Below are positions 19,829-64,000 of a stretch of 64,000 nucleotides of DNA, in pieces (the stretch's first letter is position 1; each line of letters opens with the position of its first letter). The notes under the pieces are model-generated. The model saw only the letters and a list, made by a program, of their open reading frames with translations, was not told the origin of the DNA and searched no databases. Origin of the DNA: a virus; the IMG/VR virus record IMGVR_UViG_3300005529_000024, positions 62,001-126,000 of that record; one strand, 5' to 3'. The position numbers were made by a program, and so were the translations under genes.

Positions 19829-19878
19829 GGCGGTATGGTGCTTAATTGCATCATACCGCCTTATTTCCTTTTTTATTT
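19829..19878 (+). terminator. Strong rho-independent terminator
   Basis: A 13-bp stem, 19829-19841 with 19848-19860 (GGCGGTATGGTGC pairing with GCATCATACCGCC, one G-T pair), encloses the loop TTAATT and is followed by TTATTTCCTTTTTTATTT. It ends the transcript of the 19057 gene. Confidence 0.88.
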
Positions 19879-19907
19879 ACCCTACCTTTTGCTTTTTCGC
19901 GTCTTGC
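19879..19907 (+). repeat. Recurrent 27-30 nt intergenic motif, copy 1
   Basis: The sequence CCTACCTTTTGCTTTTTCGC followed by GTCTTGC recurs at 58461-58487 and, with changes, at 29711-29741 and 41555-41584. All copies are on the plus strand a short way upstream of a gene start. This copy directly follows a terminator and precedes a 90-base leader to the gene at 19999. It may be a phage-specific promoter; see findings. Confidence 0.6.
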
Positions 19908-19998
19908 AGTTAATAAGTACTCATATGTTTTATGTTGAGCATTGTTTTGTCATACAAACATATAAGTATTTGTATTTGTTAATATAAAGGAGAATAGA

Positions 19999-25751: not shown

Positions 25752-26042
25752 CTAGAACGTAAGCACGAAGTAGAATCCTTCCCCTACTTCTCCTGGTCTA
25801 AATGGGTGTACACTTTCAGTAGTCTGATCATCCATGAGGATATTAAATCTCTTCTTCCCAATGGATAAAACCTCCATACTGCTTGCGAATATCATGTCCC
25901 CTTTCTTGTCTATCAGTGTACCACAGACAAGGATTTTCGGTGGATCATCGAAGAGGGTATGATATGCTTTAATCTTCTTTTTAAGAAGAGACAAATCGCT
26001 TGAGAAAAGTAATACTGTCGTCTTCGTAGGTTTGTAGGCCAT
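25752..26042 (-). CDS. Hypothetical protein of the leftward cluster
   Basis: Encodes 96 residues from the ATG behind GGGGAACAAC; an ATG 12 bases upstream lies before that site and is less likely. The predicted structure is mixed alpha/beta: KTTVLLFSSDLSLLKKKIK near the start, VCGTLIDKKGDMIFASSM in the middle and a C-terminal GFYFVLTF strand. No cysteine pair, membrane helix or known motif is seen. It is separated from the neighbouring leftward genes by about 10-20 bases. Confidence 0.65.
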   Translation of the reverse strand: MAYKPTKTTVLLFSSDLSLLKKKIKAYHTLFDDPPKILVCGTLIDKKGDMIFASSMEVLSIGKKRFNILMDDQTTESVHPFRPGEVGEGFYFVLTF

Positions 26043-26064
26043 GTTGTTCCCCATTTTTATGTTG

Positions 26065-26259
26065 CTAAAGTAGTGGACCTTGAGTTTGTCTTGAAACGTA
26101 GAGTTCCAATCGCTTGATCTCTTGTATCAAAGCATGGATTACTTCAGAAGCGGTAAAGAGATCAAAGACATCATCCTCAACTAAAATATCCGTGACTTTC
26201 GAGACGGTTGTTCCTTCCTTAATTAATTTTCTGAGGGAATTGGAGAATTTCTCGCTCAT
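26065..26259 (-). CDS. Small helical hypothetical protein
   Basis: Encodes 64 residues. The ATG chosen has a perfect AAAGGAGG 7 bases upstream; a longer reading frame to 26331 would run into the preceding gene and lacks such a site. The sequence is almost all helical and charged (LRKLIKEGTTVSKVTDIL, IHALIQEIKRLELYV), suggesting a small dimeric helical protein or a protein-protein adaptor. It is one base away from the end of the upstream gene. No function can be named. Confidence 0.68.
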   Translation of the reverse strand: MSEKFSNSLRKLIKEGTTVSKVTDILVEDDVFDLFTASEVIHALIQEIKRLELYVSRQTQGPLL

Positions 26260-26260
26260 A

Positions 26261-26557
26261 TTAATCCTCCTTTGTTTTAACATCTCTTGCACTGATAATA
26301 TCCGCTGCCATCCAGATAATTCGCATTTCATTTAATTCTCTATCCGCTAACTTTATTAACTTTTCTGAGTAATAATCGCTCTCGATTAATTCACTGTTTA
26401 AATCTTGATCGGTAATGAGATCTAACTGTCTTCGGATGTGTTGATTTTTCAATACAGCTTTCATCGCACCACTGATATGTTTGGCACCTTTGGCTTGTTC
26501 CAGTGTCATATCAATTGTGAACCTACCGAAGAATGCTGTCTTGGTTAATCCGCTCAT
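26261..26557 (-). CDS. Tandem paralogue A (FFGRFTIDMT family)
   Basis: Encodes 98 residues from an ATG preceded by GGGGAC. It is a paralogue of the next gene upstream (26559-26879): AFF-x-RFTI-[DE]-MT-x-EQAK near the start, then LKN-x-x-IR-[RK]-QLDLI-x-D-x-DL, then a matching E-[LI]-NEMRI-[IV]-W-[MI]-AA ending. The pair arose by tandem duplication. No membrane or signal segment. No known family is recognised; the conserved QLDLI and NEMRIVW blocks would be the place to start a profile search. Confidence 0.7.
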   Translation of the reverse strand: MSGLTKTAFFGRFTIDMTLEQAKGAKHISGAMKAVLKNQHIRRQLDLITDQDLNSELIESDYYSEKLIKLADRELNEMRIIWMAADIISARDVKTKED

Positions 26558-26558
26558 C

Positions 26559-26879
26559 TTAGTCCCCATCAGGTGACAATACTGCTTGCTGTGATGTAGG
26601 TTGCCAAAACTTAAAATTAATATTGCCTGCCGCAATCCAGACGATACGCATTTCGTTGATCTCCCTATCAGTCAACTCTTCAGGAGAATAACCGCCATCT
26701 CTTAATTCGTTAATCAGATCGTCATCGTTGATGAGATCCAGTTGCTTTCGAATAGCGGGATTTTTCAACAGAGCTTTCGCGTCTTCGTCACAACGGCCAG
26801 TATGGTATGTATCTTTAGCCTGCTCTTTTGTCATCTCAATTGTGAATCTATTAAAGAATGCTGCCTCTATTTTATGCAT
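26559..26879 (-). CDS. Tandem paralogue B (FFNRFTIEMT family)
   Basis: Encodes 106 residues; the ATG has GGGAG about 11 bases upstream, and a TTG 9 bases earlier (frame limit 26888) is an alternative. It aligns with the neighbour at 26261-26557 (FFNRFTIEMTKEQAKD, IRKQLDLINDDDLINEL, EINEMRIVWIAAG) but carries an extra 18-residue C-terminal tail rich in Q, S and P. The gene pair, separated by one base, suggests coupled translation and possibly a heterodimer. Confidence 0.7.
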   Translation of the reverse strand: MHKIEAAFFNRFTIEMTKEQAKDTYHTGRCDEDAKALLKNPAIRKQLDLINDDDLINELRDGGYSPEELTDREINEMRIVWIAAGNINFKFWQPTSQQAVLSPDGD

Positions 26880-26897
26880 TTTTCCCAACTCCCGTTA

Positions 26898-27191
26898 CTA
26901 TCTGATTTTATCGATCTCCTTCTGGATCTCTGCCAACTCGGATGCATATTTCAAGATTAAATCTTCTGACTCAGAACGAAACCCACTACATGCTTCACTG
27001 TTAATACTTTTGAATTGTTTGTGCTCTTTTTCTGGAATGCAGCTATTCCTCATCCAGTGACAACAATTACCACAGCGTCTTGCTGTAACAGATGATAATT
27101 GCTGTTTTACTTGTCGCTTCTTATCTTCGAGACAAACTAACTTTGAGACTTCCATGAAGCTATCGAATATCCTATCAGTTAGGCTACTCAA
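26898..27191 (-). CDS. Zinc-knuckle protein, TTG start
   Basis: Encodes 97 residues. A TTG start is chosen because it follows GGAGGATAAA, in which the upstream gene's stop is embedded; a longer frame to 27236 has no ribosome binding site and overlaps the upstream gene. Cysteines are grouped as C-G-N-C-C-H-W near residue 40, then C-I-P and C-S-G-F, a plausible single zinc site. Helices flank it, and the C-terminus (ELAEIQKEIDKI) looks like a coiled coil. No family is recognised; nucleic-acid or protein binding is possible. Confidence 0.65.
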   Translation of the reverse strand: MSSLTDRIFDSFMEVSKLVCLEDKKRQVKQQLSSVTARRCGNCCHWMRNSCIPEKEHKQFKSINSEACSGFRSESEDLILKYASELAEIQKEIDKIR

Positions 27192-27192
27192 T

Positions 27193-27393
27193 TTATCCTC
27201 CTTTGGCTTTTTGAAGAGCAGCTTCAGTTTTTTCAATTGTTCTGATCAGGTTGCAGCAGCAGATATTGACAGAATGGTCACAGGGTCCGATTTCTTTCAG
27301 GGTAATTTTCAATTCCTCCAGGGCCATCGTCAGTGCGTCAAAAAGATCTTGTGCAGCATCAGTTAAACTATTATTTGGTTTTGGATTTTTCAT
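27193..27393 (-). CDS. Small cysteine-containing helical protein
   Basis: Encodes 66 residues. Two ATGs lie behind GGGGAGG; the second (27393) has the better spacing of 6 bases. The N-terminus is polar, the middle is helical (AQDLFDALTMALEELKITL) and the segment GPCDHSVNICCCNLI holds four cysteines and a histidine, a possible metal site. It overlaps the upstream gene (27371-27532) by 23 bases in another frame and is followed directly by the next leftward gene. Function unknown. Confidence 0.62.
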   Translation of the reverse strand: MKNPKPNNSLTDAAQDLFDALTMALEELKITLKEIGPCDHSVNICCCNLIRTIEKTEAALQKAKGG

Positions 27394-27532
27394 TTTCATC
27401 CTCCCCTAGATCTACTGGTTGCCGACAGGTTAAGCAGTAATGTTTCCCGCTCACTAAGCGTTTGACGCCTGCCAGCAGCATAAATTTATCTTTTACTATT
27501 TTGTGCCCCAGATGCGGATTCTCTGTATCCAT
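27371..27532 (-). CDS. Small protein with C-x-x-C knuckle
   Basis: Encodes 53 residues, read by eye on the minus strand because it is below the usual length cut-off. AAGGGAAG precedes the ATG. The sequence has a lysine-rich middle and the knuckle H-Y-C-L-T-C-R near residue 31, followed by an acidic C-terminus. The C-terminal codons overlap the next gene's start and supply its ribosome binding site, the usual arrangement in this cluster. No family recognised. Confidence 0.55.
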   Translation of the reverse strand: MDTENPHLGHKIVKDKFMLLAGVKRLVSGKHYCLTCRQPVDLGEDENEKSKTK

Positions 27533-27544
27533 GAGCTTCCCTTC

Positions 27545-27841
27545 TTATTTCTTGACCGCAATGCTGAATGAGCCACAGCTATTATACACATGGAAACCGG
27601 ATAACTCATCATTTTCAAAAGCTGTAATATAATCGCGGGATCTACCGACAACCCATGCTCCAGTGATTCCGAGTGAGTGTTCCATATGCTTTTCTGTCTC
27701 AACAACTGGTTTAAATGATCTATCCTGGCTAAACACAATGCCATCTGTCATTCCATCGAACTCACTTTCATGGGCTATCAGGAGTTTGCCCTTATTCTTT
27801 TTGACAAAGCTTTTGAGTGTCGCCATCGTAGGTTTTGCCAT
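27545..27841 (-). CDS. First gene of the leftward sub-cluster, hypothetical
   Basis: Encodes 98 residues from the ATG behind GGAGGGAGAG; an ATG 12 bases upstream overlaps that site and is unlikely. The sequence reads as one mixed alpha/beta domain: a helical, lysine-rich start (LKSFVKKNKGKLLIAHESEF), strands around GIVFSQDRSFKPV and ITGAWVVGRSRDYITAF, and a C-terminal HVYNSCGSFSIAV. It is the first gene downstream of the minus-strand promoter at 27871-27898, so it is probably made early. No family recognised. Confidence 0.7.
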   Translation of the reverse strand: MAKPTMATLKSFVKKNKGKLLIAHESEFDGMTDGIVFSQDRSFKPVVETEKHMEHSLGITGAWVVGRSRDYITAFENDELSGFHVYNSCGSFSIAVKK

Positions 27842-27870
27842 CTCTCCCTCCATTGTTTGTTTAGTTGACT

Positions 27871-27898
27871 ATAGTATATCAGCATTATTTGTTTTGTC
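27871..27898 (-). promoter_or_regulatory. Leftward sigma-70 promoter
   Basis: On the minus strand TTGACA (27898-27893) and TATACT (27876-27871) are separated by 16 bases, about 30 bases upstream of the gene starting at 27841. It forms a divergent pair with the rightward promoter at 27930-27958. Confidence 0.7.
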
Positions 27899-27929
27899 AA
27901 GAGCATTGCACAGATTATTATAATGTATC

Positions 27930-27958
27930 TTGACAAAGTTTCTAAAATGTGGTATAAT
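27930..27958 (+). promoter_or_regulatory. Rightward consensus sigma-70 promoter
   Basis: TTGACA (27930-27935) and TATAAT (27953-27958) with a 17-base spacer: a full consensus match. The start codon of the small gene at 27985 follows 26 bases later, behind CTGGAG. Confidence 0.88.
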
Positions 27959-27984
27959 TCATACAAATAAAACTGGAGTATACT

Positions 27985-28194
27985 ATGGCCGCTGCTGAGA
28001 TTTATAAATCTAAAACTGAGTCGTTTTTTGTCAAGGTCACAAGTAGGTATGATGGGAAAGTTACTGTTATTTATTCACACTTTTCTAAAGACGGTACTTT
28101 CGATGGTGGTACTAAGTTTACGAGCGTTCTGGACGAAAAGAAGTTTGACGAATCTATCCAAAACGGAAAATACGCACGTGTAACGGGTGAATAA
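27985..28194 (+). CDS. Small basic beta-rich protein under a consensus promoter
   Basis: Encodes 69 residues, rich in K, S, T and aromatic residues with alternating strands (SFFVKVTSRYDGKVTVIYSH, GTKFTSVLDEKKF). No cysteines, signal or membrane helix. It lies alone, with one tiny downstream gene, on the plus strand inside an otherwise leftward cluster and is driven by a full-consensus promoter. This is the pattern of an early, highly expressed host-interaction gene. No family is recognised. Confidence 0.7.
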   Translation: MAAAEIYKSKTESFFVKVTSRYDGKVTVIYSHFSKDGTFDGGTKFTSVLDEKKFDESIQNGKYARVTGE

Positions 28195-28197
28195 AAG

Positions 28198-28296
28198 ATG
28201 ATTGTCCTTACTTATTTACAACTTTTTCTTACTATTTTCACGTCTATATTCCTGGCGCTTATAGCTGCTCCGTTTATCTGGAGATTAGTCAGGTAG
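28198..28296 (+). CDS. 32-residue membrane peptide
   Basis: Encodes 32 residues, three bases after the preceding stop. Almost the whole chain is hydrophobic (LTYLQLFLTIFTSIFLALIA), with one arginine pair near the C-terminus, so it is a single-pass membrane peptide. The ribosome binding site is weak (GGGTGAAT). The stop overlaps the end of the convergent gene at 28289. Co-transcription with the preceding gene from the promoter at 27930 is likely. Coding status rests on composition and packing only. Confidence 0.5.
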   Translation: MIVLTYLQLFLTIFTSIFLALIAAPFIWRLVR

Positions 28297-28498
28297 GATC
28301 TTTATTATCATGCAGGCATTCAGATACTAGGCGTATTGCTCTATTTGTTGCCTCATTGAATATTGAATCTTCTGGTGTTTTCGGCCTTTGTATTTTTCCT
28401 GCTTCCAGAATGATTTTTAATCTAGACAGGGACTCTTTGCATTCATCACAGAATTTGAGATTCATCTTTTCCCCATTGGCTGAGTGTGGGTAGTTCAT
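28289..28498 (-). CDS. Small Cys-pair helical protein
   Basis: Encodes 69 residues from the ATG behind AGGGACAAA; an internal ATG 33 bases later behind GGGGAAAAG is an alternative start. The sequence contains F-C-D-E-C-K near residue 17 and one later cysteine, with amphipathic helices (SLSRLKIILEAGKI, NRAIRLVSECLHD). It converges with the 28198 peptide and overlaps it by 8 bases. No family is recognised; its neighbours in the cluster also carry single C-x2-C knuckles. Confidence 0.62.
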   Translation of the reverse strand: MNYPHSANGEKMNLKFCDECKESLSRLKIILEAGKIQRPKTPEDSIFNEATNRAIRLVSECLHDNKDPT

Positions 28499-28505
28499 TT
28501 TGTCC

Positions 28506-28688
28506 CTATTTATTTAATTCTATTTCGAGTTGGGCGATTAATAGGTTGGGTACTTCACAATAAGCAGTATTGCCATTGCAGAGTACATATTTTGGTTTGT
28601 AGTAGTGGGGTTGTATATCGATCTTCATAGAGCATAGGTTACAATGCTCTCCTCCAGATTTATCTTTCTCCCAATAATCACAGAGCAT
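28506..28688 (-). CDS. Small zinc-finger-like protein
   Basis: Encodes 60 residues. Cysteines lie at residue 3, in the pair C-N-L-C near residue 16, and at C-N-G and Y-C-E near residues 37 and 44, with histidines at 15 and 28: enough ligands for one or two zinc ions. The C-terminus is a short helix (LLIAQLEIELNK). The start overlaps the end of the upstream leftward gene by 11 bases. No family recognised. Confidence 0.65.
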   Translation of the reverse strand: MLCDYWEKDKSGGEHCNLCSMKIDIQPHYYKPKYVLCNGNTAYCEVPNLLIAQLEIELNK

Positions 28689-28875
28689 ATTTTTTCCTAT
28701 CGAGTAACTTAGATAATGCTTTCATTTTTACGTAGATCTTGGCGATGATATCTGGATCTTCGATACAATCTATGCAGCGAAATCTATTATGCATTACTTC
28801 AAATAGGATCTGATCGTGCCTATGGCATCCTTGACAAAACTTATTTCTTAATATCAGCAATCTTGAATTCTCCAT
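28678..28875 (-). CDS. Four-cysteine zinc-ribbon protein
   Basis: Encodes 65 residues from the first ATG after the hairpin at 28903-28922; the reading frame is open further upstream to 28956, but that part runs through the hairpin and the upstream gene. No good ribosome binding site is seen for this ATG, so the start is uncertain. The zinc ribbon is clear: C-Q-G-C at residues 15-18 and C-I-D-C near residues 37-40, spaced as in many treble-clef or ribbon domains. A lysine-rich helix follows. Nucleic acid binding is the common role of such folds. Confidence 0.6.
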   Translation of the reverse strand: MENSRLLILRNKFCQGCHRHDQILFEVMHNRFRCIDCIEDPDIIAKIYVKMKALSKLLDRKKYAL

Positions 28876-28902
28876 TAAAGTAGGTAAAGATGTACGTACT
28901 AA

Positions 28903-28922
28903 GGGGGGTCTAAAGACCCCCC
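28903..28922 (-). terminator. GC-rich hairpin at a stop codon
   Basis: GGGGGGTC (28903-28910) pairs with GACCCCCC (28915-28922) around the loop TAAA, a perfect 8-bp GC-rich stem. On the minus strand the stop codon of the upstream gene lies in the loop. There is no long T run after it, so it may be an attenuator or processing signal rather than a full terminator. Confidence 0.6.
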
Positions 28923-29125
28923 TCAAGCATAGCTTCATCTGTATTATTAAAGTCAAGGAATTTAGGACGTTTCTCTTCTATTTCCTCAACCTCATAATGG
29001 TAGTGAGCATTCGCTGGCACATTGTCAACAATTTTCTGAAGCAGTCCTGCGTTCTCACATACTGCCATGACTGTAGTGTTACCTTCTGAATCATAACGGA
29101 TGATACCATGCTTTTGCTTGTACAT
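28910..29125 (-). CDS. Hypothetical protein ending in a hairpin
   Basis: Encodes 71 residues from an ATG behind GTGGAGGTC. The sequence is a mix of strands (HGIIRYDSEGNTTVMAVCEN) and a helix (AGLLQKIVDNVP) with an acidic C-terminal half. Its final codons (Gly-Gly-Leu-stop) form one arm of the hairpin at 28903-28922. The start overlaps the stop of the preceding leftward gene by one base. No family is recognised. Confidence 0.68.
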   Translation of the reverse strand: MYKQKHGIIRYDSEGNTTVMAVCENAGLLQKIVDNVPANAHYHYEVEEIEEKRPKFLDFNNTDEAMLEGGL

Positions 29126-29412
29126 TATTTGGAGACCTCCACGTTCCCCTTATAGATATAGATGACAGTGGAATCTCCAGAGACCCTTTCAGCCACTTTG
29201 TACGGAGTGCCTTTCCATGCGCGGCGCAATCCGTAGACAACCGTGGAGGGCTTATACTTCTCAGGATCAATCTCCACAATTTTAGCTCTAAAGTCCGTGG
29301 CATCCTTAAGCTCCTCACGAAGCTCAGTAGCCAATTGCTTAATAAAGCTCTTACGGTTCTTTTTGACGGTTCGGATATCGCAATCTGCTTCCTTCACTTT
29401 GATTCCTTCCAT
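29125..29412 (-). CDS. First gene of the leftward cluster, hypothetical
   Basis: Encodes 95 residues from an ATG behind AAGGAGGAAGC. A charged helical first half (SFIKQLATELREELKD) is followed by strands (STVVYGLRRAWKGTPYKV, STVIYIYKG). It is the promoter-proximal gene of the 25.4-29.4 kb leftward cluster and reads away from the control region at 29413-29768. No clear sigma-70 promoter is visible upstream on the minus strand; a weak TTGCAC with an 18-base spacer to TACAAA is the nearest. No family is recognised. Confidence 0.68.
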   Translation of the reverse strand: MEGIKVKEADCDIRTVKKNRKSFIKQLATELREELKDATDFRAKIVEIDPEKYKPSTVVYGLRRAWKGTPYKVAERVSGDSTVIYIYKGNVEVSK

Positions 29413-29710: not shown

Positions 29711-29741
29711 TTACCCTACCTTTTTCTTTTTTGCGTCTTGC
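29711..29741 (+). repeat. Recurrent 27-30 nt intergenic motif, copy 2
   Basis: CCTACCTTTTTCTTTTTTGC followed by GTCTTGC matches the copies at 19879 and 58461 apart from small changes in the T-rich centre. It ends 27 bases before the ATG of the gene at 29769, with AAAGGAG in between, so a transcript starting within or just after it would have a very short leader. Confidence 0.6.
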
Positions 29742-29768
29742 ATATTAAAATTTCAAAAAAGGAGATGA

Positions 29769-34386: not shown

Positions 34387-34415
34387 TTGACAAATTGCAA
34401 TGTTAGTTGTATAAT
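34387..34415 (+). promoter_or_regulatory. Consensus sigma-70 promoter
   Basis: TTGACA (34387-34392) and TATAAT (34410-34415), 17-base spacer, directly after the primase stop. Drives the small gene at 34444 and probably the sigma-like gene behind it. Confidence 0.88.
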
Positions 34416-34443: not shown

Positions 34444-34725
34444 ATGATTAAGCGTCAGCAGTATTTCAGAATCGGCAAGTATGCAGAACATATTCACAAG
34501 GGGTTTCTTACCGTGCCGGATCTTTTGACCGATGTTGACTTTATTGCTCTTGATAACGTAACAAAAGCTCAATTGCTCTCCATTTGGATGCTTTTATCCA
34601 GCAAAAATAATGACTTCGAGAAACTTCCTTACGACAGTATCACGGTCAAAAAGCTTATCTCTTCTAACCGAAAGGTTAATTTGAGAAAGCTTCTTGATCG
34701 TGGTTTTATTTCTCTAATTAAGTAG
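34444..34725 (+). CDS. Small winged-helix-like protein
   Basis: Encodes 93 residues behind AAAGGGAGAAACGC. Segments F-L-T-V-P-D-L-L, K-A-Q-L-L-S-I-W-M-L-L-S and V-K-K-L-I-S-S-N-R-K-V-N-L-R-K-L-L-D-R-G-F-I-S suggest a small winged-helix or DnaD/replisome-organiser-like N-domain, in which the final strand is the wing. It is first behind a consensus promoter and precedes the sigma-like gene by 17 bases, so a transcription or replication regulator is plausible. Domain call is from the helix pattern only. Confidence 0.55.
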   Translation: MIKRQQYFRIGKYAEHIHKGFLTVPDLLTDVDFIALDNVTKAQLLSIWMLLSSKNNDFEKLPYDSITVKKLISSNRKVNLRKLLDRGFISLIK

Positions 34726-34742: not shown

Positions 34743-35474
34743 ATGGATCAGCAAGAGGTTCGATTTAACGAAGCTTTGAATAAGTTTCGTGGCTTTTTTC
34801 GGTTTCTTGGTCGTAAATATGAAATTATTCCTGCACTTGAACGTGAAGATATTGAGCAAATTTGTGCAGAGAAGTTATTCAAGATTGTATCTGAGTGCGA
34901 TTGGGATATAAACTCCATTGCATTTACAGCTTACGTTAAAGACTCAGCTAAAAATGTGGTTTTCAGTGCGATGAGATATCACTCTTCATATAAGCGGTCA
35001 CACAATAAAGAGGTACATGATATCACAGAATCGCGTGGTAATAATGACGAGCCGAGTACTATATCTGTGTTCGACATTCTGTCAGATAAGGCTCAAGAGA
35101 ATCCTGAAAATATAACCACATATGAGGATTTAAAAGAGAAGATCTGTTCTGTGTTAACAGAGGAAGAGAGATCATTATTTTATGAGATCGATCAATCAGA
35201 TACTTCTCGTGCTTGGTCATTGCTGAGTACTAAATATGCCAATAGCTGGCCCCGTCCTACTAACGCTATTTATGCTGAAGCTCTTGGAATTACACTTGGT
35301 CATTTAAAGTCAATTAAAAAGTCAATGAGAAACAAAATTATGGCGTTGTTTTTATCCTGTCCTTATTGTGGCTCTAATAATATCGCTAAATATAAACGAC
35401 AGGATGATAAATGGTTATATGCCTGTGCTAACAAATCTTGTGAAGATAAAGTTTTTACCCCATTATTTTTATAG
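34743..35474 (+). CDS. Sigma-factor-like protein with C-terminal zinc ribbon
   Basis: Encodes 243 residues. Residues 25-85 resemble sigma region 2 (REDIEQICAEKLFKI, then NSIAFTAYVKDSAKNVVFSA), and residues 120-200 resemble a region 4-like helix-turn-helix (LTEEERSLFYEIDQS, then IYAEALGITLGHLKSIKKSM). The C-terminal 40 residues are a zinc ribbon with C-P-Y-C and C-A-N-K-S-C. A region 2/region 4 protein with an attached ribbon would suit a phage transcription factor that redirects host polymerase. Key sigma residues are too diverged for certainty. It follows a consensus promoter. Confidence 0.55.
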   Translation: MDQQEVRFNEALNKFRGFFRFLGRKYEIIPALEREDIEQICAEKLFKIVSECDWDINSIAFTAYVKDSAKNVVFSAMRYHSSYKRSHNKEVHDITESRGNNDEPSTISVFDILSDKAQENPENITTYEDLKEKICSVLTEEERSLFYEIDQSDTSRAWSLLSTKYANSWPRPTNAIYAEALGITLGHLKSIKKSMRNKIMALFLSCPYCGSNNIAKYKRQDDKWLYACANKSCEDKVFTPLFL

Positions 35475-36063: not shown

Positions 36064-36646
36064 GTATCTCAAAGAAAAGGAAAAAAACTTTGTAAACGTA
36101 TTGCCGAAGACTTTTACTCGTGACTTAGAGGGTAATGATGTTGTGCAGAGTGGATATTTGATTCCTTTCGATGATTATTTTGTCATTGTAAAGCTACCTG
36201 AGTTTGAAACTGATGAATCAATCACAGAGTTTGCTTTCCCCTATAGTAACATCTGTAATCTATCTATTGCTCCCGATTGTCCCTGTCCTAATTGTATACG
36301 CGATGATGCGGAGTTCGAAGAATTCTACTTGACATATAATAAGTCTAGGCGCACATTCAAACAATATTGTGAATCTCTTCAGACTTCTTATGTTGGGTTG
36401 ATGACTACTGATCTTCATGTTAGTACTGAAGGTAAGCCATATGTCTATATTGGTACTCTAATCGTTCATGAAGATTTTGTGGTTTTCAGAAATATCGCTG
36501 GCGAGGAAAAGTTGTATCCATTCGAATCTATTTTGTCGATTACCCCGATTAAATATGATTTAATTCGTGACAGGATTGAGTTTTTTGAGAAGCGATCAGC
36601 TACACAACCCGATATACAATCATATGGAGAGAACAATGCCGATTAA
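36050..36646 (+). CDS. Hypothetical protein, paralogue of the 61019 product
   Basis: Encodes 198 residues. The middle and C-terminal segments (TFKQYCESLQTSYVGLM, TLIVHEDFVVFRNIAGEE) align with the small protein at 61019-61267 (TFHEYLKNLETCYALLF, TIIVHDDFVLIRDVDNKE). A C-P-C-P-N-C cluster near residue 82 may bind a metal. The repeated fold, a helix and a small beta barrel, occurs once here after a 100-residue N-domain. It overlaps the upstream coiled-coil gene and the RtcB gene, so translation is probably coupled. Confidence 0.65.
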   Translation: MKINEYLKEKEKNFVNVLPKTFTRDLEGNDVVQSGYLIPFDDYFVIVKLPEFETDESITEFAFPYSNICNLSIAPDCPCPNCIRDDAEFEEFYLTYNKSRRTFKQYCESLQTSYVGLMTTDLHVSTEGKPYVYIGTLIVHEDFVVFRNIAGEEKLYPFESILSITPIKYDLIRDRIEFFEKRSATQPDIQSYGENNAD

Positions 36647-37820
36647 ACAAGAAATCACAAGTGGTAGAGTTCCCGTAAAAATATGGACAGATGCTGTTGA
36701 ATCTGAGGCTTACGGACAGCTTAAGAATGTGGCTAATCTACCGTTCGTCTTCCATCACGTGGCTGTGATGCCAGATTGCCATGTTGGGAAGGGCGCTGTA
36801 GTTGGATCTGTTGTCCCTACGGAAAATGCTATCTGTCCGGCTACTGTTGGTGTCGATATCGGTTGCGGGATGATTGCAGCGAAACTTGTTGGATTGTCAG
36901 CTAAAGATTTCTCTGATGATAAAGTTCTGCGTGAGATTCGTTTAGAGATTGAGAAGAATGTTCCTGTAGGATTTGACCGTCATGATAAGGCGAGCCAAGC
37001 TGCATGGAATTGGGATGGATGGAGAACTTTTTCTACCCTCACTGAAGGTGTTCAAGATCTTAAAGATAAAGCTATGAAGCAGTTAGGGACTCTTGGTGGA
37101 GGAAACCATTTTATTGAACTGTGCCTTGATCGTAATAATGATGCATGGGTTGTTCTCCATTCTGGATCTCGCAATATCGGTAAATCAGTTACTGAGGTGC
37201 ATATCAATAAGGCAAAGGGACTTATACAGGAGTTAGCAATCCATCTTCCTGATAAAGATCTTGCTTATTTTACAAGTGGTACGCCCGAATTTTCTGCCTA
37301 TTTGAACGATCTGTTTTGGGCACAGAATTATGCGCTGATGAACCGTGAGCTTATGCTGAAGAGCGTTTTATCATCGTTGGTTTCTGCGTTGCATCTTCCT
37401 TATCTCTATTTGGAGAACCGCATCAATTGTCACCATAATTATGTGGCTACGGAAGAGCATTTCGGTAAGTCTATCCTAATTACACGCAAAGGAGCTATTC
37501 GGGCTAAAGCTGGAGATCTGGGAGTTATTCCTGGATCGATGGGCACTAAATCTTATATCGTTAAGGGATTAGGTAATCCTGAATCGTTCGATTCTTGTTC
37601 CCATGGTGCTGGTCGTAGGATGAGCCGTGGCGCTGCAAAGAAAGTGTTTACTGTTCAAGACTTGGAAGCACAGACGGCTGGTGTCGAATGCCGAAAGGAT
37701 TCTGGAGTGATCGATGAGATTCCTGGTGCTTACAAGGATATCGATGAGGTCATGACTAATCAAGCTGATCTTGTTGAGGTTTGTTACGAGTTGAAGCAGT
37801 TTCTGTGCGTAAAGGGTTAA
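36636..37820 (+). CDS. rtcB: RtcB-type 3'-phosphate RNA ligase
   Basis: Encodes 394 residues from an ATG behind GGAGAGAAC; a longer frame to 36567 lies inside the preceding gene. All family motifs are visible: M-P-D-C-H-V-G-K-G, V-G-V-D-I-G-C-G-M near residue 72, L-G-G-G-N-H-F-I-E-L, H-S-G-S-R-N-I-G near residue 180, N-C-H-H-N-Y and the nucleophile-containing S-H-G-A-G-R-R near residue 330. RtcB joins a 2',3'-cyclic phosphate or 3'-phosphate to a 5'-OH with GTP and Mn2+. In a phage it would repair tRNA cut by host anticodon nucleases. The RlaP-like gene at 53473 is a likely partner. Confidence 0.93.
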   Translation: MPIKQEITSGRVPVKIWTDAVESEAYGQLKNVANLPFVFHHVAVMPDCHVGKGAVVGSVVPTENAICPATVGVDIGCGMIAAKLVGLSAKDFSDDKVLREIRLEIEKNVPVGFDRHDKASQAAWNWDGWRTFSTLTEGVQDLKDKAMKQLGTLGGGNHFIELCLDRNNDAWVVLHSGSRNIGKSVTEVHINKAKGLIQELAIHLPDKDLAYFTSGTPEFSAYLNDLFWAQNYALMNRELMLKSVLSSLVSALHLPYLYLENRINCHHNYVATEEHFGKSILITRKGAIRAKAGDLGVIPGSMGTKSYIVKGLGNPESFDSCSHGAGRRMSRGAAKKVFTVQDLEAQTAGVECRKDSGVIDEIPGAYKDIDEVMTNQADLVEVCYELKQFLCVKG

Positions 37821-38751: not shown

Positions 38752-41561
38752 TGAGTTCTGGTGATTTTGATCTCTTATCCAAAATATCGGATAGGGATGA
38801 TTTTGCTAAGTATAAGCATGATCAGTTTAACAAGGGTCGTGACTTTAGCGATATCCTACGAACGTATACAAGTAAATGTCATTCTTGTGATCTATGCTTT
38901 GGCGCAAAGAATATCAAACTAGATTATCGTGGCGCATCAAACCCGAAAATTCTGATAGTGGGTGACGCTCCAGGTGCTACCGAGAACGAGCGTGGTGTTT
39001 CCTTCGTTGGTACAACAAGTGATCTCCTCGTTCGTTCATTGGGTGAAGCCGGGATAGCTTCTGCTGAGGTTGCTTTTACCAATTTGGTTCGTTGTATCCC
39101 TTGGGCACAGGATCATAAGAGCAACAGACAACCAACAGAATCTGAAATAAATGCTTGCATCGGATATCTCTATGAGGAGATAAAACTTTTAGATCCTAAA
39201 GTCATAGTCACGTTAGGCAATACCGCATATACAGCATTAACAAAAGATGCTTCCCCACTTATAATTGTTAGAGGGAATAAGCGAGAGATAACCGTAGACG
39301 GAAGAGCATATCCTCTGATACCGACTTATCATCCATCGTATATCTTTCGTGGTGGTGCTAAGGTAGCCGATCTTATTGCTGATCTTCGCATTGTGGCGAA
39401 TATGTTTGATCAGCGAACCAAAGACTATGCTTTCTTTAATACGGTCGAAGAACTGGAATCCTATGTAGATCTTGTAATAGAGGAACATAAGCAGAATAAG
39501 CTCTACGCTGGTTTTATTTCGTGCGACCTTGAATGGAAGGGAGCGAAAGATGATAGCTTCAATGCCTTTAAGAAAGAATGCATCATATCATCTATCCAGC
39601 TTTGCCATGCTCCTTATTTTGGCCGCGTCATTCTCTGGGATCATGAGCAGTCTAACTTTAAGGATGAGTTAAGTAAATCCCGTATTCGCGCTGCTTTACA
39701 GAGATTATTCGATACTGTTCCAGTAGGGAACCACAACATAAAAGCTGATTATAAGATGATGAAGTATCGCGTTGGTGTGGAAATGCGTCATGTTGTATTC
39801 TGCACCATGCTTTCACATCATTATCTTGTAGTAGACTCGGAACCTAACGATATCGAATATGTCGCTGGTAAGTATGCTGGTATGCCGAAGTGGGATCATC
39901 AGTCTGCTGGCTGGAAGAGCAAGATGGATCAATGCCCACTCGATATTCTCTTGGATTACGGCTGTTGCGACGTTGACGCAGTAATACGTGTTGCCCCCCT
40001 CATCAAAAAAGAACTTATCGATAAGGGCATGTACGATTCTTATATGCGCTTGAGTAATCGAGCGATTGTTCCTGTGGCCGATCTTGAAAGCAATGGTCTC
40101 CCTGTGGATTACCAGAAGCATAGAGAGTTGGTAGAAAAATATGAGAAAAAGTTTAATGAGTTCCTGGCTCAGATGCAGGAGTATGCTGAGGTTAAACAGA
40201 CAAGCGAATTATACGGCAAGTTTATGCCTAACTATTATCAGTGGCTTCATATTCTCTATTTTGATGTTCTAAAGTTACCTGGCTTCGAATGGAATAAGTC
40301 TAAGACTCTGTATTCCACAGATGTTGATACAAGAGAGAAATTACTTGAATATTGCAAGTCTAAAGGCGTTCTAGGCAAGGAGATGGTCATTGATAAGAAA
40401 GCTCTTGATCGTGTAGTTGATTTTGATCGTGCATTTGAGATTGTGAATCTAACACACGAATATAAGAAAATGCATGGGCTTCTTACAAAGTTTCTATATC
40501 CCTTATCGCTATATTTTTCTGATGACGGGAGTGTCCATCCAGGGTATAAAATCGCTGCTGCTCGAACCGCTAGAACTCTATCGGAAGATCCATCTGCACA
40601 TACGCTACCACCTCGAACGGATATTAAGGATATGTTTGTCTCCAGGTGGGCGACTTCTGGTGGTGTCATATTAAAGGGTGACGAATCACAGCTAGAGCTT
40701 AGAATTTTGGCTGTCTTGTCTAAAGATCCTGGTCTGAATGAAGCATTCAACGCTGGTAAAGACGTTCATAGATATGTGGCGTCTCGTGTCTTTAAATGTA
40801 AAGAAGCTGAAGTTACTAAGGATCAACGGCGTCTTTCTAAGGCAATCAGTTTTGGTATCGTCTTCCAGGGTGGTCCTGGTCTCATTGCGCTGACAACTGG
40901 ATTGACATTTGATGAAGCTAAAAAGCTGATTGATGACTTTTTCACGATGTTCCCTGCCGTTCAAGCCTTTATGCATGGATGTATCGAAACAGCACGAGAA
41001 ACAGGTATCGTAAAAATACCTATGGGTCGTTTCCGTCCTATTGATAATATGAACTCTCCGGATAATGCGAAACGAACTTATGCGGAACGTCAGTGTGGCA
41101 ATACTCCTATTCAGGGAGGTGCAGCTTTACTTGTTCTTGATTGTGCTCTGAACCTATATGAGGATGTTAAAAAATCGAATTTAAAGAGTAGATGGATTGA
41201 ATATACTCATGATTCTTCTGGCTATGATGTCTATCCAGGAGAACTTTTCCCGATCATGAAGAAGATTAAATTTCACATGCAGGAGAATGTTTCTCTGACT
41301 AATCCTTGGGTTACAGTCCCAATTTTAACAGATTTTGAACTTGGTGCCGATTGTGGGTTTATGCCTGGAATTGATAAGTTCCATATCGAAAATGATTACA
41401 ATGGCATCTTAGAGATCAAAGGCTTCCCAGAAAAAGTTCATAAGTTATTGGGAGAATTGGATGTTGTCTACAATTTAGATTATAAATTTAGTGAAAAAGA
41501 TAAAGAAGGTAACATAAAGGGTGAAGTAAAAATGGAAATGCGCGAAGAATGGATATCCTAA
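38751..41561 (+). CDS. Uracil-DNA glycosylase (family 4) / family A DNA polymerase fusion
   Basis: Encodes 936 residues. Residues 35-220 are a family 4 uracil-DNA glycosylase: iron-sulphur cysteines C-H-S-C-D-L-C and R-C-I-P...A-C-I-G, motif V-G-D-A-P-G, G-V-S-F-V-G and Y-H-P-S. Residues 245-425 are a 3'-5' exonuclease with C-D-L-E, N-H-N-I-K-A-D and Y-G-C-C-D. The polymerase domain has motif A K-G-D-E-S-Q-L-E-L-R, motif B R-R-L-S-K-A-I-S-F-G and motif C T-H-D-S, where the usual Glu after Asp is Ser. SPO1 polymerase is known to carry a UDG-like N-terminus, so the fold order is not new. The fusion would remove uracil close to the fork. Confidence 0.92.
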   Translation: MSSGDFDLLSKISDRDDFAKYKHDQFNKGRDFSDILRTYTSKCHSCDLCFGAKNIKLDYRGASNPKILIVGDAPGATENERGVSFVGTTSDLLVRSLGEAGIASAEVAFTNLVRCIPWAQDHKSNRQPTESEINACIGYLYEEIKLLDPKVIVTLGNTAYTALTKDASPLIIVRGNKREITVDGRAYPLIPTYHPSYIFRGGAKVADLIADLRIVANMFDQRTKDYAFFNTVEELESYVDLVIEEHKQNKLYAGFISCDLEWKGAKDDSFNAFKKECIISSIQLCHAPYFGRVILWDHEQSNFKDELSKSRIRAALQRLFDTVPVGNHNIKADYKMMKYRVGVEMRHVVFCTMLSHHYLVVDSEPNDIEYVAGKYAGMPKWDHQSAGWKSKMDQCPLDILLDYGCCDVDAVIRVAPLIKKELIDKGMYDSYMRLSNRAIVPVADLESNGLPVDYQKHRELVEKYEKKFNEFLAQMQEYAEVKQTSELYGKFMPNYYQWLHILYFDVLKLPGFEWNKSKTLYSTDVDTREKLLEYCKSKGVLGKEMVIDKKALDRVVDFDRAFEIVNLTHEYKKMHGLLTKFLYPLSLYFSDDGSVHPGYKIAAARTARTLSEDPSAHTLPPRTDIKDMFVSRWATSGGVILKGDESQLELRILAVLSKDPGLNEAFNAGKDVHRYVASRVFKCKEAEVTKDQRRLSKAISFGIVFQGGPGLIALTTGLTFDEAKKLIDDFFTMFPAVQAFMHGCIETARETGIVKIPMGRFRPIDNMNSPDNAKRTYAERQCGNTPIQGGAALLVLDCALNLYEDVKKSNLKSRWIEYTHDSSGYDVYPGELFPIMKKIKFHMQENVSLTNPWVTVPILTDFELGADCGFMPGIDKFHIENDYNGILEIKGFPEKVHKLLGELDVVYNLDYKFSEKDKEGNIKGEVKMEMREEWIS

Positions 41562-41584
41562 CTTCTAACTTTTCGCGTCTTGGA
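41555..41584 (+). repeat. Recurrent 27-30 nt intergenic motif, diverged copy
   Basis: TCCTAACTTCTAACTTTTCG followed by CGTCTTGG shares the 5' TCCTA and the 3' TTTTCGCGTCTTG of the other copies, with a diverged middle. It overlaps the last codons of the polymerase gene and ends 22 bases before the ATG at 41607, with AGGAG in between. Confidence 0.5.
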
Positions 41585-45715: not shown

Positions 45716-46397
45716 TTGTATAAATTGGGATAACGTGAACGTTCTTGTTTTCTCGGAATGTAACAATATCGATCTCTATTTTTCAAATGCTAGAAAATTT
45801 GTTGAGAATAATTATCTTGATCAATTAAATTATTTTAGGGGATTGCGCCCTGAGCATATTACAGAGAATAAATTCATAGACGAATATGTGTGGGTTGTAT
45901 ATGCAAGCGGGTTTAACGCATCTGTATTAAGTAAGAAATGGGACAAACTAAAGTCGATATATTCACAGATATACATAGATCTAGGATTTACATCGCTTTT
46001 TTCATATGATATCGAGAAATCATTAAAAGAGGCTTGCGAATTAATCAATAGGAGGGATAAGGCTGGTTCTATTGTTCGCGTTTTAACCGAGCTAGATAGT
46101 ATTGGATATGCCGCGTTTAGAAATAAATATCTCTCTAATCTTGATTCTATGATGGACTTACCATTTATTGGTCCTACTACTAAATATCATCTTGGGCGTA
46201 ATCTTGGTATAGATTGTGTGAAGCCCGATGTGCATCTAGTTAGAATGGCAGAATATTTTGGATTTTCTACACCCTTGGCAATGTGTGAATATCTAGGTAC
46301 GAATTATAATGAGCGTATTGGAGTTGTGGACTTGATCCTCTGGTATGCTGCTTCAACATTCGGTACACAGCATATGAGGAGTATGCAGTTAAAATGA
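45693..46397 (+). CDS. Helix-hairpin-helix DNA glycosylase-like protein
   Basis: Encodes 234 residues. The C-terminal half has the helix-hairpin-helix L-P-F-I-G-P-T-T-K-Y-H-L-G near residue 150 followed by K-P-D-V-H-L-V-R, where the aspartate occupies the catalytic position of HhH-GPD glycosylases such as endonuclease III and OGG1; no iron-sulphur cysteines follow. The N-terminal half is helical with a Y-V-W-V-V-Y-A-S-G strand. Base repair next to the FEN gene is plausible. The gene overlaps FEN by 23 bases and the SbcD gene by 4. Confidence 0.7.
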   Translation: MEEHLSDSCINWDNVNVLVFSECNNIDLYFSNARKFVENNYLDQLNYFRGLRPEHITENKFIDEYVWVVYASGFNASVLSKKWDKLKSIYSQIYIDLGFTSLFSYDIEKSLKEACELINRRDKAGSIVRVLTELDSIGYAAFRNKYLSNLDSMMDLPFIGPTTKYHLGRNLGIDCVKPDVHLVRMAEYFGFSTPLAMCEYLGTNYNERIGVVDLILWYAASTFGTQHMRSMQLK

Positions 46398-54417: not shown

Positions 54418-54426
54418 AATCAATCC

Positions 54427-54455
54427 TTGACATGAGTATTAAATAATGGTATACT
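54427..54455 (+). promoter_or_regulatory. Consensus sigma-70 promoter
   Basis: TTGACA (54427-54432) and TATACT (54450-54455), 17-base spacer, starting 9 bases after the RlaP-like stop and 22 bases before the DUF262 gene start. GTAGGGAGGA is its ribosome binding site. Confidence 0.85.
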
Positions 54456-54476
54456 CATATGTAGGGAGGATCTCAA

Positions 54477-57339: not shown

Positions 57340-57368
57340 TTATATATAAGCAAAATAGGAGATTAAAG

Positions 57369-57635: not shown

Positions 57636-57684
57636 TATCTATGAATAGGGTGAACAGGTTTAAACTCTAAACATGGAGGTTAAA

Positions 57685-58451: not shown

Positions 58452-58460
58452 AAATCCTTA

Positions 58461-58487
58461 TCCTACCTTTTGCTTTTTCGCGTCTTG
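58461..58487 (+). repeat. Recurrent 27-30 nt intergenic motif, copy 3
   Basis: TCCTACCTTTTGCTTTTTCG followed by CGTCTTGC: identical to the copy at 19881-19907 over 26 consecutive bases. It ends about 40 bases before the ATG at 58529. Identity over that length in non-coding DNA is unlikely by chance. Confidence 0.65.
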
Positions 58488-58528
58488 CCTACTAAAGATC
58501 CAAATTAATAAAAACTAAGGAAAATAAT

Positions 58529-61866: not shown

Positions 61867-62592
61867 ATGTCGAAGAACGTGAAAGAAAAAATTATACCTA
61901 TTGACTCGCATACCCAAGAAAGTTTTAATGCTCGCGTATTACCGTTGTATTTAGCGCGGCGTTCAGGTGTTGATAACTCTATCGAGCTATTTGATTTACT
62001 AAGTCATATCGTTAATATCGTAGCTCCCAGATCGTTTCCATCTGTATCAGAATTTGATGCAGACGATTTGAAATCAAGAGGTAGAGAGTACCTGTGGAAG
62101 AAGATTAAGAATAATGATCTTCCAGATATAGAATCAGGGTTCTTCAATTATTTCTATGAATGTATTAAGAATGAAATGCTTCGTGAGTTAAAGGGTATCA
62201 ATCAGCAGATATTCGAGTCTGGTAACGCTTCTGTTGAATGCCCGTCTATGTCAAAGCTATACACGGTTGATAATGTCGAGAATTACATTACAGCTTACGA
62301 GGTATTGCAGAACCTGTATATGGAGATCGTTGCTGAGATTAGATTCGGGGATAATGAGTTCCTTCTTTGCAAATATATTCTATCTCGCATATTGATTTCT
62401 GAGGTCATCTCTCCACGTCATATAAAACGTGCTTATGGTATACAAAATTACAAATTCTACGTGGATTATATCCAAGTAAAAATAAAGTCTAAGCTTTATA
62501 AATATAGAGACATATTAACCAAGATGGGTTGCAACATAGCAGAGATCTCCCAACAATATTTATTGGAGCCAGAAAATAATGCGGATCTATGA
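61867..62592 (+). CDS. Sigma-factor-like protein
   Basis: Encodes 241 residues. The central segment A-D-D-L-K-S-R-G-R-E-Y-L-W-K-K-I near residue 65, then F-N-Y-F-Y-E-C-I-K-N-E-M-L-R-E-L, has the layout of sigma region 2 (a D-L-x-x-x-G-x-x-x-L-W helix followed by Y-x-x-x-x-I-R-x-x-M-x-x-x-L). The C-terminal part is helical and could be a region 4-like domain, but no clear DNA-recognition motif is visible. A late sigma factor before the terminase genes would agree with a phage-specific late programme. Confidence 0.55.
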   Translation: MSKNVKEKIIPIDSHTQESFNARVLPLYLARRSGVDNSIELFDLLSHIVNIVAPRSFPSVSEFDADDLKSRGREYLWKKIKNNDLPDIESGFFNYFYECIKNEMLRELKGINQQIFESGNASVECPSMSKLYTVDNVENYITAYEVLQNLYMEIVAEIRFGDNEFLLCKYILSRILISEVISPRHIKRAYGIQNYKFYVDYIQVKIKSKLYKYRDILTKMGCNIAEISQQYLLEPENNADL

Positions 62593-62950
62593 TGACGTAA
62601 AGATATTCGAAAAATATTCTGGTGGAATTATTGATCCTGTTGAGCTTCTATTGCTGTATTCTTCCCGGATGACTTTACTACCTGAGCTATATGATGCTTT
62701 GGGTAGAGAGTATGCACTTAGATTCCTGGACATATTCTCTGGTCGTACTATCAGTATCCCGTCTCAGGAAGCGATGAATCGTGATTTACGCGATGTTGCT
62801 ATCTTTCTGAGAATTCATAAGAACGATACGCCAGAGCGTAGAAAAGAGATTGCTCAGAAATATGACATCACGTTAGAGAACCTTGATCGTATTTACAAGG
62901 CAGTAAATGATGTTGTTTCTAATGTTGCTAAATTCAAGTTTAATGGTTAG
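62579..62950 (+). CDS. Mor-like DNA-binding protein
   Basis: Encodes 123 residues. The pattern L-P-E-L-Y-D-A-L-G-R-E-Y-A-L-R-F-L, then G-R-T-I-S-I-P-S, then R-D-V-A-I-F, ending in a helix-turn-helix (IAQKYDITLENLDRIYKAV), resembles Mor/C-type middle activators. In Mor the first segment is the dimerisation domain and the last is the DNA-binding helix-turn-helix. The start overlaps the sigma-like gene by 14 bases. A small terminase subunit with HTH is another possibility. Confidence 0.6.
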   Translation: MRIYDDVKIFEKYSGGIIDPVELLLLYSSRMTLLPELYDALGREYALRFLDIFSGRTISIPSQEAMNRDLRDVAIFLRIHKNDTPERRKEIAQKYDITLENLDRIYKAVNDVVSNVAKFKFNG

Positions 62951-62956
62951 AGGTTT

Positions 62957-63457
62957 ATGGAAGACGATACTACGCGAGATCTAGATAAAGCTTTAGATAC
63001 GATACGAGCTATATGTACAACGAAAGCGACAGAAGCATTAGCCAAAGAAGAAGTTGAGAAGATCCTATCTGACCATCAACTAAAGTTAAAGTTATTCATG
63101 GCTGCGTTTTCTCTTAAGCGCGTTAATAGTATTATCCGTGTCGCTAAGATGCAGGATTTCATCGAAGAGAAGCTACTTGATCCTGAACGTTGGAAAAATG
63201 CCAGTAATAAAGATTTGCTCAAGCTTCTTGTTAAGCTTAATGACATTGTTGCTCAGAATATGGATTACTTCAGTCAGATTCTTGGCGGTGACACACAGTT
63301 TGATCCGAATCTATTAGTTGTTCTTCTCGGTGACAAATCCAAAGCAGAGGATAAGGAAAAGACAGTCAAGAGGTTGGAAGATCTTTCTCCTGAATCACGA
63401 GAGAAGATTCGATCTAAATTTTCTGATTTGCTTGGCTCATTAAAGAATGATGGATGA
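62957..63457 (+). CDS. Possible small terminase subunit
   Basis: Encodes 166 helical, charged residues without known motif. It lies directly before the large terminase, overlapping it by about 10 bases, which is the usual position of the small subunit that recognises packaging sites. The N-terminal part (ALDTIRAICTTKATEAL) could be a helix bundle, and the C-terminal part is rich in lysine and glutamate (SKAEDKEKTVKRLEDL). The role is inferred from position only. Confidence 0.5.
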   Translation: MEDDTTRDLDKALDTIRAICTTKATEALAKEEVEKILSDHQLKLKLFMAAFSLKRVNSIIRVAKMQDFIEEKLLDPERWKNASNKDLLKLLVKLNDIVAQNMDYFSQILGGDTQFDPNLLVVLLGDKSKAEDKEKTVKRLEDLSPESREKIRSKFSDLLGSLKNDG

Positions 63458-64000
63458 TAAAAAACTAACGAAAGAAGAAGAGAACTTACTTAAAAAATTA
63501 AGCGATGACTCTAATAATGACACGAGAGAATTTTTCGATTCGTTATCTCTTCATGAACGTGAAGTTGCCTTACAGATTATCAAAGAGATGGAGAGTACTG
63601 GAAAGTCTGATACCTATGACCTTCTTTGGGAAACAGACTTTGTGCGGAAACCAGCTACTCCAAAAGAGTTTTTAGAAGATCATGCTTATCTAGGTAAGGA
63701 TATCACGAGCAAGCTCTATGATCCTTGGAAGGAAGTCTTATGCACAGCGTTGGATGCCAAGAATGAGATCAATGAGTTAGTGTTATCTGGGGCTATCGGT
63801 ATCGGTAAGTCTACTGTGGCGAATGTGGCTATGATGTATAAGCTATATTCGTTGTCTTGTCTTAAAAACCCACAGAAGTACTACCATAAGATGGAGCACA
63901 TAACAATCACCTTTGCCTTGTTCAGTGCCACATTGCAGGTGATCTCCAATACAACATTCTCCGATCTTCTCGGTATGTTCAATGCAAGTCCATATTTTAA
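63447..64000 (+). CDS. terL: Large terminase subunit (3' truncated by window)
   Basis: The frame opens at ATG-ATG (63447/63450) and is open to the window end, so only the N-terminal 184 residues are seen. The ATPase Walker A is near residue 119 in L-V-L-S-G-A-I-G-I-G-K-S-T, preceded by a helical region with a Y-D-P-W-K-E segment typical of terminase adenine-binding motifs, and followed by a strand (ITITFALFSATLQV) at the usual distance. The nuclease half should lie beyond the window. It powers DNA packaging into the head. Confidence 0.82.
   Translation, partial: MMDDKKLTKEEENLLKKLSDDSNNDTREFFDSLSLHEREVALQIIKEMESTGKSDTYDLLWETDFVRKPATPKEFLEDHAYLGKDITSKLYDPWKEVLCTALDAKNEINELVLSGAIGIGKSTVANVAMMYKLYSLSCLKNPQKYYHKMEHITITFALFSATLQVISNTTFSDLLGMFNASPYF

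What the first reader, a model, noticed from the sequence alone, without database searches (positions are those of the whole stretch)
34743..35474. Two diverged sigma-like proteins, one with a zinc ribbon
The 34743 product has region 2- and region 4-like segments plus a C-terminal four-cysteine ribbon; the 61867 product has a region 2-like segment just before the packaging genes. Together with the recurrent motif they suggest a two-step phage transcription switch using host polymerase. The ribbon fused to a sigma-like fold is unusual.
Basis: partly seen in the sequence, partly recalled or inferred. Interest (0 to 1): 0.62.

Follow-up and report, generated by a model that had tools for sequence, protein, structure and literature searches.

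The report
Two diverged phage sigma factors
This uncultured virus of bacteria carries two very diverged relatives of the protein (sigma factor) that tells the bacterial transcription machine where to start, one with a zinc-binding tail and one sitting with a partner protein beside the DNA-packaging genes, together with a virus-specific start signal that one or both of them could read.

Summary
Confirmed in the main, with one claim unproven. Both proteins are real and are the two most sigma-like ORFs of a 174-kb virus record. HMMs of other phages' sigma factors rank the 34743 product 1st and the 61867 product 2nd of 199 own ORFs. Support is for region 2 (E 2e-5 for P0001, 0 of 2000 shuffles); a region 4-only profile does not support P0001. 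The four-cysteine ribbon is there by inspection; no relative found has it. The 61867 product has relatives in other uncultured phages: one matches Pfam Sigma70_r2 (E 6e-5), and a model of the window protein best matches T4 gp55 (Z 11). New here: 61867 is followed by a Mor-like gene (62579) near the terminase, and the two are fused in two other phages, one of them cultured Maribacter phage Colly_1. The recurrent motif is real: 11 intergenic + strand copies of TTAnCCTAaC-N12-GCGTCTTG before replication, packaging and tail operons. P0001 follows a perfect host-type promoter. Best reading: early P0001 directs host polymerase to the motif; 61867+62579 act later. Which protein reads which promoter, and what the ribbon does, are inference. 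New variant of a known kind.

The parts
34743..35474 (+). P0001, 243 aa: diverged sigma-like protein. Region 2 about residues 8-89, probable C-terminal helix-turn-helix about 120-204 (not supported statistically), zinc ribbon 206-233
35358..35441 (+). DNA coding the four-cysteine ribbon C206-x2-C209-x18-C228-x4-C233
   Evidence: sequence; weak ribbon profile hits
34387..34415 (+). perfect host sigma-70 type promoter TTGACA-N17-TATAAT in front of 34444 and P0001
   Evidence: (12 of 12 matches)
34444..34725 (+). 93-aa ORF of unknown function between this promoter and P0001, probably on the same transcript
   Evidence: no family
61867..62592 (+). second sigma-like protein, 241 aa: region 2 domain (residues 14-111) and a second helical domain (134-219)
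62579..62950 (+). Mor-family DNA-binding protein, 123 aa; conserved partner of 61867 and fused to its counterpart in Maribacter phage Colly_1 and contig L220
62957..63457 (+). 166-aa ORF conserved between the pair and the terminase large subunit (possibly small terminase)
   Evidence: synteny
63447..64000 (+). start of the terminase large subunit (continues beyond the window), next to the pair
29711..29742 (+). recurrent motif copy upstream of the replication operon (29769, 30063, helicases, primase)
41553..41584 (+). recurrent motif copy upstream of 41580 (HD, SSB, UvsX, exonuclease, SbcDC, ribonucleotide reductase)
58458..58489 (+). recurrent motif copy upstream of 58529 and the operon with 61867, 62579, terminase and portal
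19877..19908 (+). recurrent motif copy upstream of 19999 and the large ORF 20279

Best explanation
The virus uses host RNA polymerase with two phage sigma-like factors. Shown: P0001 and the 61867 product both carry a sigma region 2 like segment, and the 61867 product is predicted to have the fold of T4 gp55 / sigma region 2. Inferred: P0001 is made early from a host sigma-70 promoter, replaces the host sigma on core polymerase and directs it to the recurrent motif TTAnCCTAaC-N12-GCGTCTTG in front of the replication, packaging and some tail operons. One of these operons makes the 61867 product and its partner 62579, which together form a second, two-piece specificity factor: 61867 binds the beta-prime clamp and melts the -10 region, while the Mor-like protein gives upstream DNA or polymerase contacts, for later transcription. 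The zinc ribbon of P0001 probably adds a contact to polymerase or upstream DNA. Separate confidences: P0001 is sigma-like 0.9; 61867 is sigma-like 0.93; 61867 and 62579 work as one unit 0.8; P0001 reads the motif 0.5; the full early-to-late order 0.45.
For: HMMs built without the two proteins rank them 1st and 2nd of 199 own ORFs; the most independent one (six phage sigmas found with PHROG_1740) gives E 5.3e-4 and 0.014, with 0 and 1 of 2000 shuffles as good. The HMM of the 61867 family finds P0001 as the next-best own ORF, E 0.0029. A 61867 relative (L134) hits Pfam Sigma70_r2 at E 6.1e-5. AlphaFold with 9 sequences (pLDDT 72): all 50 VIA rows are RNA polymerase sigma factors or models of them, led by T4 gp55 (7d7c_F, Z 11.0, rmsd 3.1 over 100 residues); Foldseek's first PDB hits are sigma-E. 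The 61867/Mor/62957/terminase order recurs in L121, L130, L131, L133, L134, L239 and L240; the pair is fused in Colly_1 (Mor part E 4e-11) and L220 (E 3e-6). P0001-type sigma-like genes lie in or next to the replication block of SPO1 (gp28), Psa3, Colly_1, G041, G040, G023 and G021. Motif: 11 intergenic + strand sites scoring 25-51 against 16 on the other strand and about 10 in shuffles. The promoter of P0001 is 12 of 12; 17 such promoters against 0-3 in shuffled genomes. No RpoB found, with controls ringing.
Against: Region 4 of P0001 has no statistical support. Pfam Sigma70_r2 does not hit either window protein. P0001 itself has no good structure model (pLDDT 39) and no close relative. Several seeds of the broader HMMs were chosen by eye and position, which inflates the 1.7e-7 value. 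Foldseek E-values are not significant on their own (0.28; 0.016 in the viral set), and Z 11 is only moderate for a helical model. The motif may be read by an alternative sigma of the host or by 61867+62579 instead. No third, late-only promoter class was found, so a strict middle/late split is not shown.
Confidence: 0.55

Rival explanations
1. P0001 is a sigma-derived protein that no longer initiates: it keeps region 2 to occupy the beta-prime clamp and acts as an inhibitor or co-regulator of host polymerase, while the ribbon binds DNA or polymerase.
For: Only region 2 is statistically supported; region 4 is not. The ribbon fusion is atypical. An early promoter suits a host take-over protein.
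Against: Proven phage sigmas such as SPO1 gp28 and gp34 are just as diverged and are missed or barely found by the same phage sigma model. A C-terminal helical segment with an HTH-like stretch follows in the right place.
Confidence: 0.17
2. The motif is read by the 61867+62579 pair rather than by P0001; P0001 reads other, unrecognised promoters.
For: The motif has two boxes, and the pair offers a region 2 domain, a second helical domain and a Mor-like DNA-binding domain. It stands before packaging and tail genes as well as replication genes.
Against: The pair lies in an operon that itself starts with the motif, so something earlier must start it; the motif also precedes the replication operon, while P0001 has a host-type promoter.
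Confidence: 0.25
3. P0001 is not a sigma at all but a helical DNA-binding protein with a zinc ribbon (for example a recombination or transposase-derived factor) whose similarity to region 2 is chance.
For: No Pfam sigma hit; the ribbon resembles those of topoisomerases and transposases by eye; the single-sequence model is unusable.
Against: Rank 1 of 199 ORFs in four of the six HMMs tested and rank 2 in the 61867-family one (the exception is the SPO1 gp28-only HMM, rank 11); 0 of 2000 shuffles with the six-sigma and region 2 HMMs; same gene neighbourhood as SPO1 gp28 and other sigma-like genes.
Confidence: 0.07

Closest known systems
SPO1 gp28 (middle sigma factor) and counterparts in herelleviruses
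   Same: size, diverged region 2, place between primase and DNA polymerase in a related replication module
   Different: no zinc ribbon in gp28; similarity too low for BLAST or for a gp28-only HMM; SPO1 middle promoter differs from the motif here (own knowledge)
T4 gp55 with co-activator gp33
   Same: 61867 model matches gp55 best; a short sigma plus a small partner protein, as described in PMC7892883
   Different: the partner here is Mor-like, and its homology to gp33 was not tested; T4 late promoters have a -10 box only (own knowledge); no sliding clamp was sought here; 61867 has a second helical domain
SPO1 gp34 and gp33
   Same: late sigma plus small accessory protein in adjacent genes
   Different: gp33 is annotated as sigma accessory, not Mor, and was not compared with 62579 in detail; gp34 is not next to the terminase in the stretch read
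CorE-type ECF sigma factors (ECF238, former ECF44)
   Same: cysteine-rich C-terminal domain on a sigma factor (PMC8999054)
   Different: CorE is a metal-sensing cellular regulator with a CxC in the linker; P0001 has a classical-looking four-cysteine ribbon and no CxC
Mu Mor / C activator family (PF08765)
   Same: 62579 passes the Pfam cut-off (29 bits against 24.9)
   Different: Mu Mor is a stand-alone activator of the Mu middle promoter (PMC4287176); here it is paired or fused with a sigma-like protein

Membership tests
Sigma-70 family (P0001) | region 2 sequence signature | tested here: met
   phage sigma HMMs E 2e-5 to 5e-4, 0 of 2000 shuffles; Pfam PF04542 itself does not hit
Sigma-70 family (P0001) | region 4 helix-turn-helix | tested here: inconclusive
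   region 4-only profile: rank 7, E 1.6; HTH-like by eye
Sigma-70 family (P0001) | binds core RNA polymerase and gives promoter-specific initiation | not testable with these tools
   needs biochemistry
Sigma-70 family (61867 product) | region 2 signature and fold | tested here: met
   relative L134 hits PF04542 E 6.1e-5, 0.8 bits under the cut-off; fold match to gp55 and other sigmas
Sigma-70 family (61867 product) | region 4 fold | tested here: inconclusive
   well-predicted second helical domain 134-219; matches spanning both domains have large rmsd; region 4 profile gives no support
T4 gp55 | sigma region 2 homology domain | tested here: met
   Z 11.0, rmsd 3.1 over 100 residues to 7d7c_F
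T4 gp55 | works with gp33 and a sliding clamp on a -10-only late promoter | not tested
   no clamp gene was searched for; homology of 62579 to gp33 not tested
Mor family (62579) | PF08765 match over the curated cut-off | tested here: met
   29 bits against 24.9, E 1.1e-6
SPO1 gp28 family (P0001) | sequence similarity to gp28 | tested here: inconclusive
   gp28-only HMM gives no support (rank 11); position and layout agree
[quoted passage not shown]
   cysteines only at 41, 52, 135, 206, 209, 228, 233; PMC8999054 says CxC is kept only in the former ECF44 members

The most novel reading that the evidence does not exclude
A new phage transcription system: an early sigma whose C-terminal zinc ribbon helps it dock on polymerase or DNA (a bacterial parallel to TFIIB, which also pairs a ribbon with helical domains), followed by a two-piece sigma in which a Mor-type activator has become a fixed specificity subunit, in place of region 4 or gp33, in a cassette tied to the terminase across a large group of uncultured phages.
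Probability: 0.25. Interest if true: 0.8.

Novelty: new variant of a known kind. Interest (0 to 1): 0.6.

Why it matters
Phage sigma factors that standard models miss are probably common in uncultured phages. This case shows how they can be found (weak profile hit, fixed gene neighbourhood, fusion in a relative, promoter motif) and gives a ready target: a named promoter motif and two candidate factors. The 61867-62579 pair, whose fused form is annotated only as a hypothetical protein in the cultured Maribacter phages, suggests that activator and sigma can merge into one specificity unit, which bears on how two-part sigma systems such as T4 gp55/gp33 arise.

Tried and rejected
BLAST-type searches for relatives of P0001 and 61867 in phages, viral contigs and (P0001) genomes found none. 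phmmer against the solved structures gave nothing useful for either protein, nor did the profile of the 61867 family. Single-sequence AlphaFold of P0001 was unusable. A primase profile had no stretch conserved enough to scan with. An hhalign test with small families was weak: P0001 led the own ORFs only with the pooled profile. A search for a third, late-only promoter motif found nothing convincing. A cysteine-rich ORF next to the sigma-like gene of G041 looked like a stand-alone ribbon but does not resemble the P0001 tail. The T7-type polymerase search was uninformative, controls silent.

Full report
What was checked. The window is bases 62001-126000 of a 174,395-base virus record. The finding's main ORF, 34743-35474, is intact and codes 243 aa. 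The second, 61867-62592, codes 241 aa.

Is P0001 sigma-like beyond chance? Standard Pfam models do not hit it. PHROG_1740, a phage sigma family, gives E 0.049 over residues 33-198 in the full library scan, and P0001 is its only match in this genome, E 0.0078. As a yardstick the same model finds SPO1 gp34, a proven sigma factor (PMC9429907), at E 0.00165 and does not list SPO1 gp28. So weak scores are usual for phage sigmas. I then built HMMs from other phages' sigma proteins, leaving out both window proteins, and scored all 199 own ORFs of at least 100 aa plus shuffled copies. The most independent set (six proteins) ranks P0001 first (E 5.3e-4) and 61867 second (E 0.014); with 2000 shuffles 0 and 1 reach the score. 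A larger set gives P0001 E 1.7e-7, but some of its seeds were chosen by eye and position, so that figure is inflated. A gp28-only HMM gives no support. Split by region, region 2 alone gives E 2.1e-5 for P0001 (0 of 2000 shuffles), while region 4 alone gives no support. The claim of region 4 in P0001 therefore rests on helix order and on the eye only.

The ribbon. Cysteines 206, 209, 228 and 233 form CPYC-x18-C-x4-C at the C-terminus. Profile hits are weak. None of the P0001-type proteins in other phages that I found has it. Its function is unknown; a contact to polymerase or DNA is a guess from ribbons in general.

The 61867 product. Scanning viral contigs with a terminase alignment brought in relatives whose gene order next to the terminase is the same: 61867-like, Mor-like, 62957-like, terminase. 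One relative hits Pfam Sigma70_r2 at E 6.1e-5. An AlphaFold model from nine sequences (pLDDT 72) finds sigma factors as its first PDB matches. In the VIA list all 50 rows are RNA polymerase sigma factors or models of them, led by T4 gp55 with Z 11.0 and rmsd 3.1 over 100 residues. The tool warns that such a Z is moderate for helical models; the uniformity of the list and the Pfam hit make chance unlikely. The HMM of this family finds P0001 as its next-best own ORF, E 0.0029, in region 2.

A pair that is one protein elsewhere. 62579 belongs to the Mor family. In contig L220 and in Maribacter phage Colly_1 the sigma-like and Mor-like parts are one ORF (354 and 337 aa; Mor part E 3e-6 and 4e-11). 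In Colly_1 the sigma-like half was recognised by eye and by its position, not by the family HMM, which lists only the L220 fusion (E 1e-5). The Colly_1 ORF is annotated as a single hypothetical protein in a cultured phage and is found only in the Maribacter phages of the collection. I infer that 61867 and 62579 work together.

A second sigma-like gene in relatives. Genes of P0001 type lie in or beside the replication block in SPO1 (gp28), Pseudomonas phage QdP_Psa3, Colly_1 and the uncultured viruses G041, G040, G023 and G021. For G023 and G021 the HMM support is weak (E 0.03 and 0.09 with P0001 among the seeds). Two sigma-like genes per virus are seen in Colly_1, G023 and G021 besides this record.

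Promoters. Seventeen perfect host-type promoters (TTGACA-N16-18-TATAAT/TATACT) occur in the record, against 0 to 3 in shuffled genomes. One is at window 34387-34415, in front of 34444 and P0001. The recurrent motif, TTAnCCTAaC-N12-GCGTCTTG, has 11 copies, all intergenic and on the + strand; the best reverse-strand score is far lower. Window copies stand before the replication operon, the UvsX-SbcCD-reductase operon, a tail ORF and the operon with 61867, 62579, terminase and portal. Searched in the window alone with two mismatches allowed, a shorter pattern is not significant; the significance comes from the whole record and the full motif.

Reading. P0001 is probably made early by host polymerase with host sigma and then directs it to the motif; 61867 with 62579 follows from a motif-driven operon. 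The order and the assignments are inferred from layout only. The main rivals are that the pair reads the motif, or that P0001 is a sigma-derived regulator that no longer initiates.

Known and new. Phage sigma factors, middle/late switches and sigma plus small partner are known (SPO1 gp28, gp34/gp33; T4 gp55/gp33, PMC7892883; PMC9429907). A cysteine-rich tail on a sigma is known in CorE (PMC8999054). A survey of jumbo phages describes sigma factors and gp33 orthologues, and the passages I read mention no sigma fused to a ribbon (PMC7824862); that is not a proof of absence. I also did not find a Mor-type protein described as fused to or paired with a sigma-like protein, though my literature search was small. 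I file this as a new variant of a known kind.

Noticed in passing
window 29711-29742, 41553-41584, 58458-58489, 19877-19908 and seven further sites in the record: Two-box motif TTAnCCTAaC-N12-GCGTCTTG, 11 intergenic copies, + strand only; probable phage promoter.
   Followed up: yes
window 57608-57636, 54418-54480, 52525, 27930 and genome 130-155 kb: Many perfect or near-perfect host sigma-70 type promoters, mostly in front of small ORFs outside the structural block; probably the early genes.
   Followed up: partly
window 36567-37820; genome 141126-143826 and 11177-12202: RtcB RNA ligase, an RNA-binding protein (PHROG_850) with an RNA ligase beside it, and another RNA ligase (PHROG_24030): several RNA repair genes in one virus.
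   Followed up: no
window 17065-17817 and 19057-19809: Two 250-aa ORFs with stretches of DNA up to 91% alike: probably a gene duplication in the tail region.
   Followed up: no
window 10637-10746, 20365-20684, 21718-21785: 42-base repeats shared by ORFs 10554 and 20279, coding a repeated 14-residue unit; possible fibre repeats.
   Followed up: no
window 25752-29412: A block of small ORFs on the minus strand inside an otherwise mostly plus-strand genome, between tail and replication genes.
   Followed up: no
window 45693-46397: 234-aa ORF without family hit whose sequence (FIGPTTKYHLGRNLG...KPDVHLVR) looks like a helix-hairpin-helix DNA glycosylase.
   Followed up: no
window 57194-57368: Intergenic stretch with short complementary segments just before ORF 57369; no Rfam match.
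   Followed up: partly
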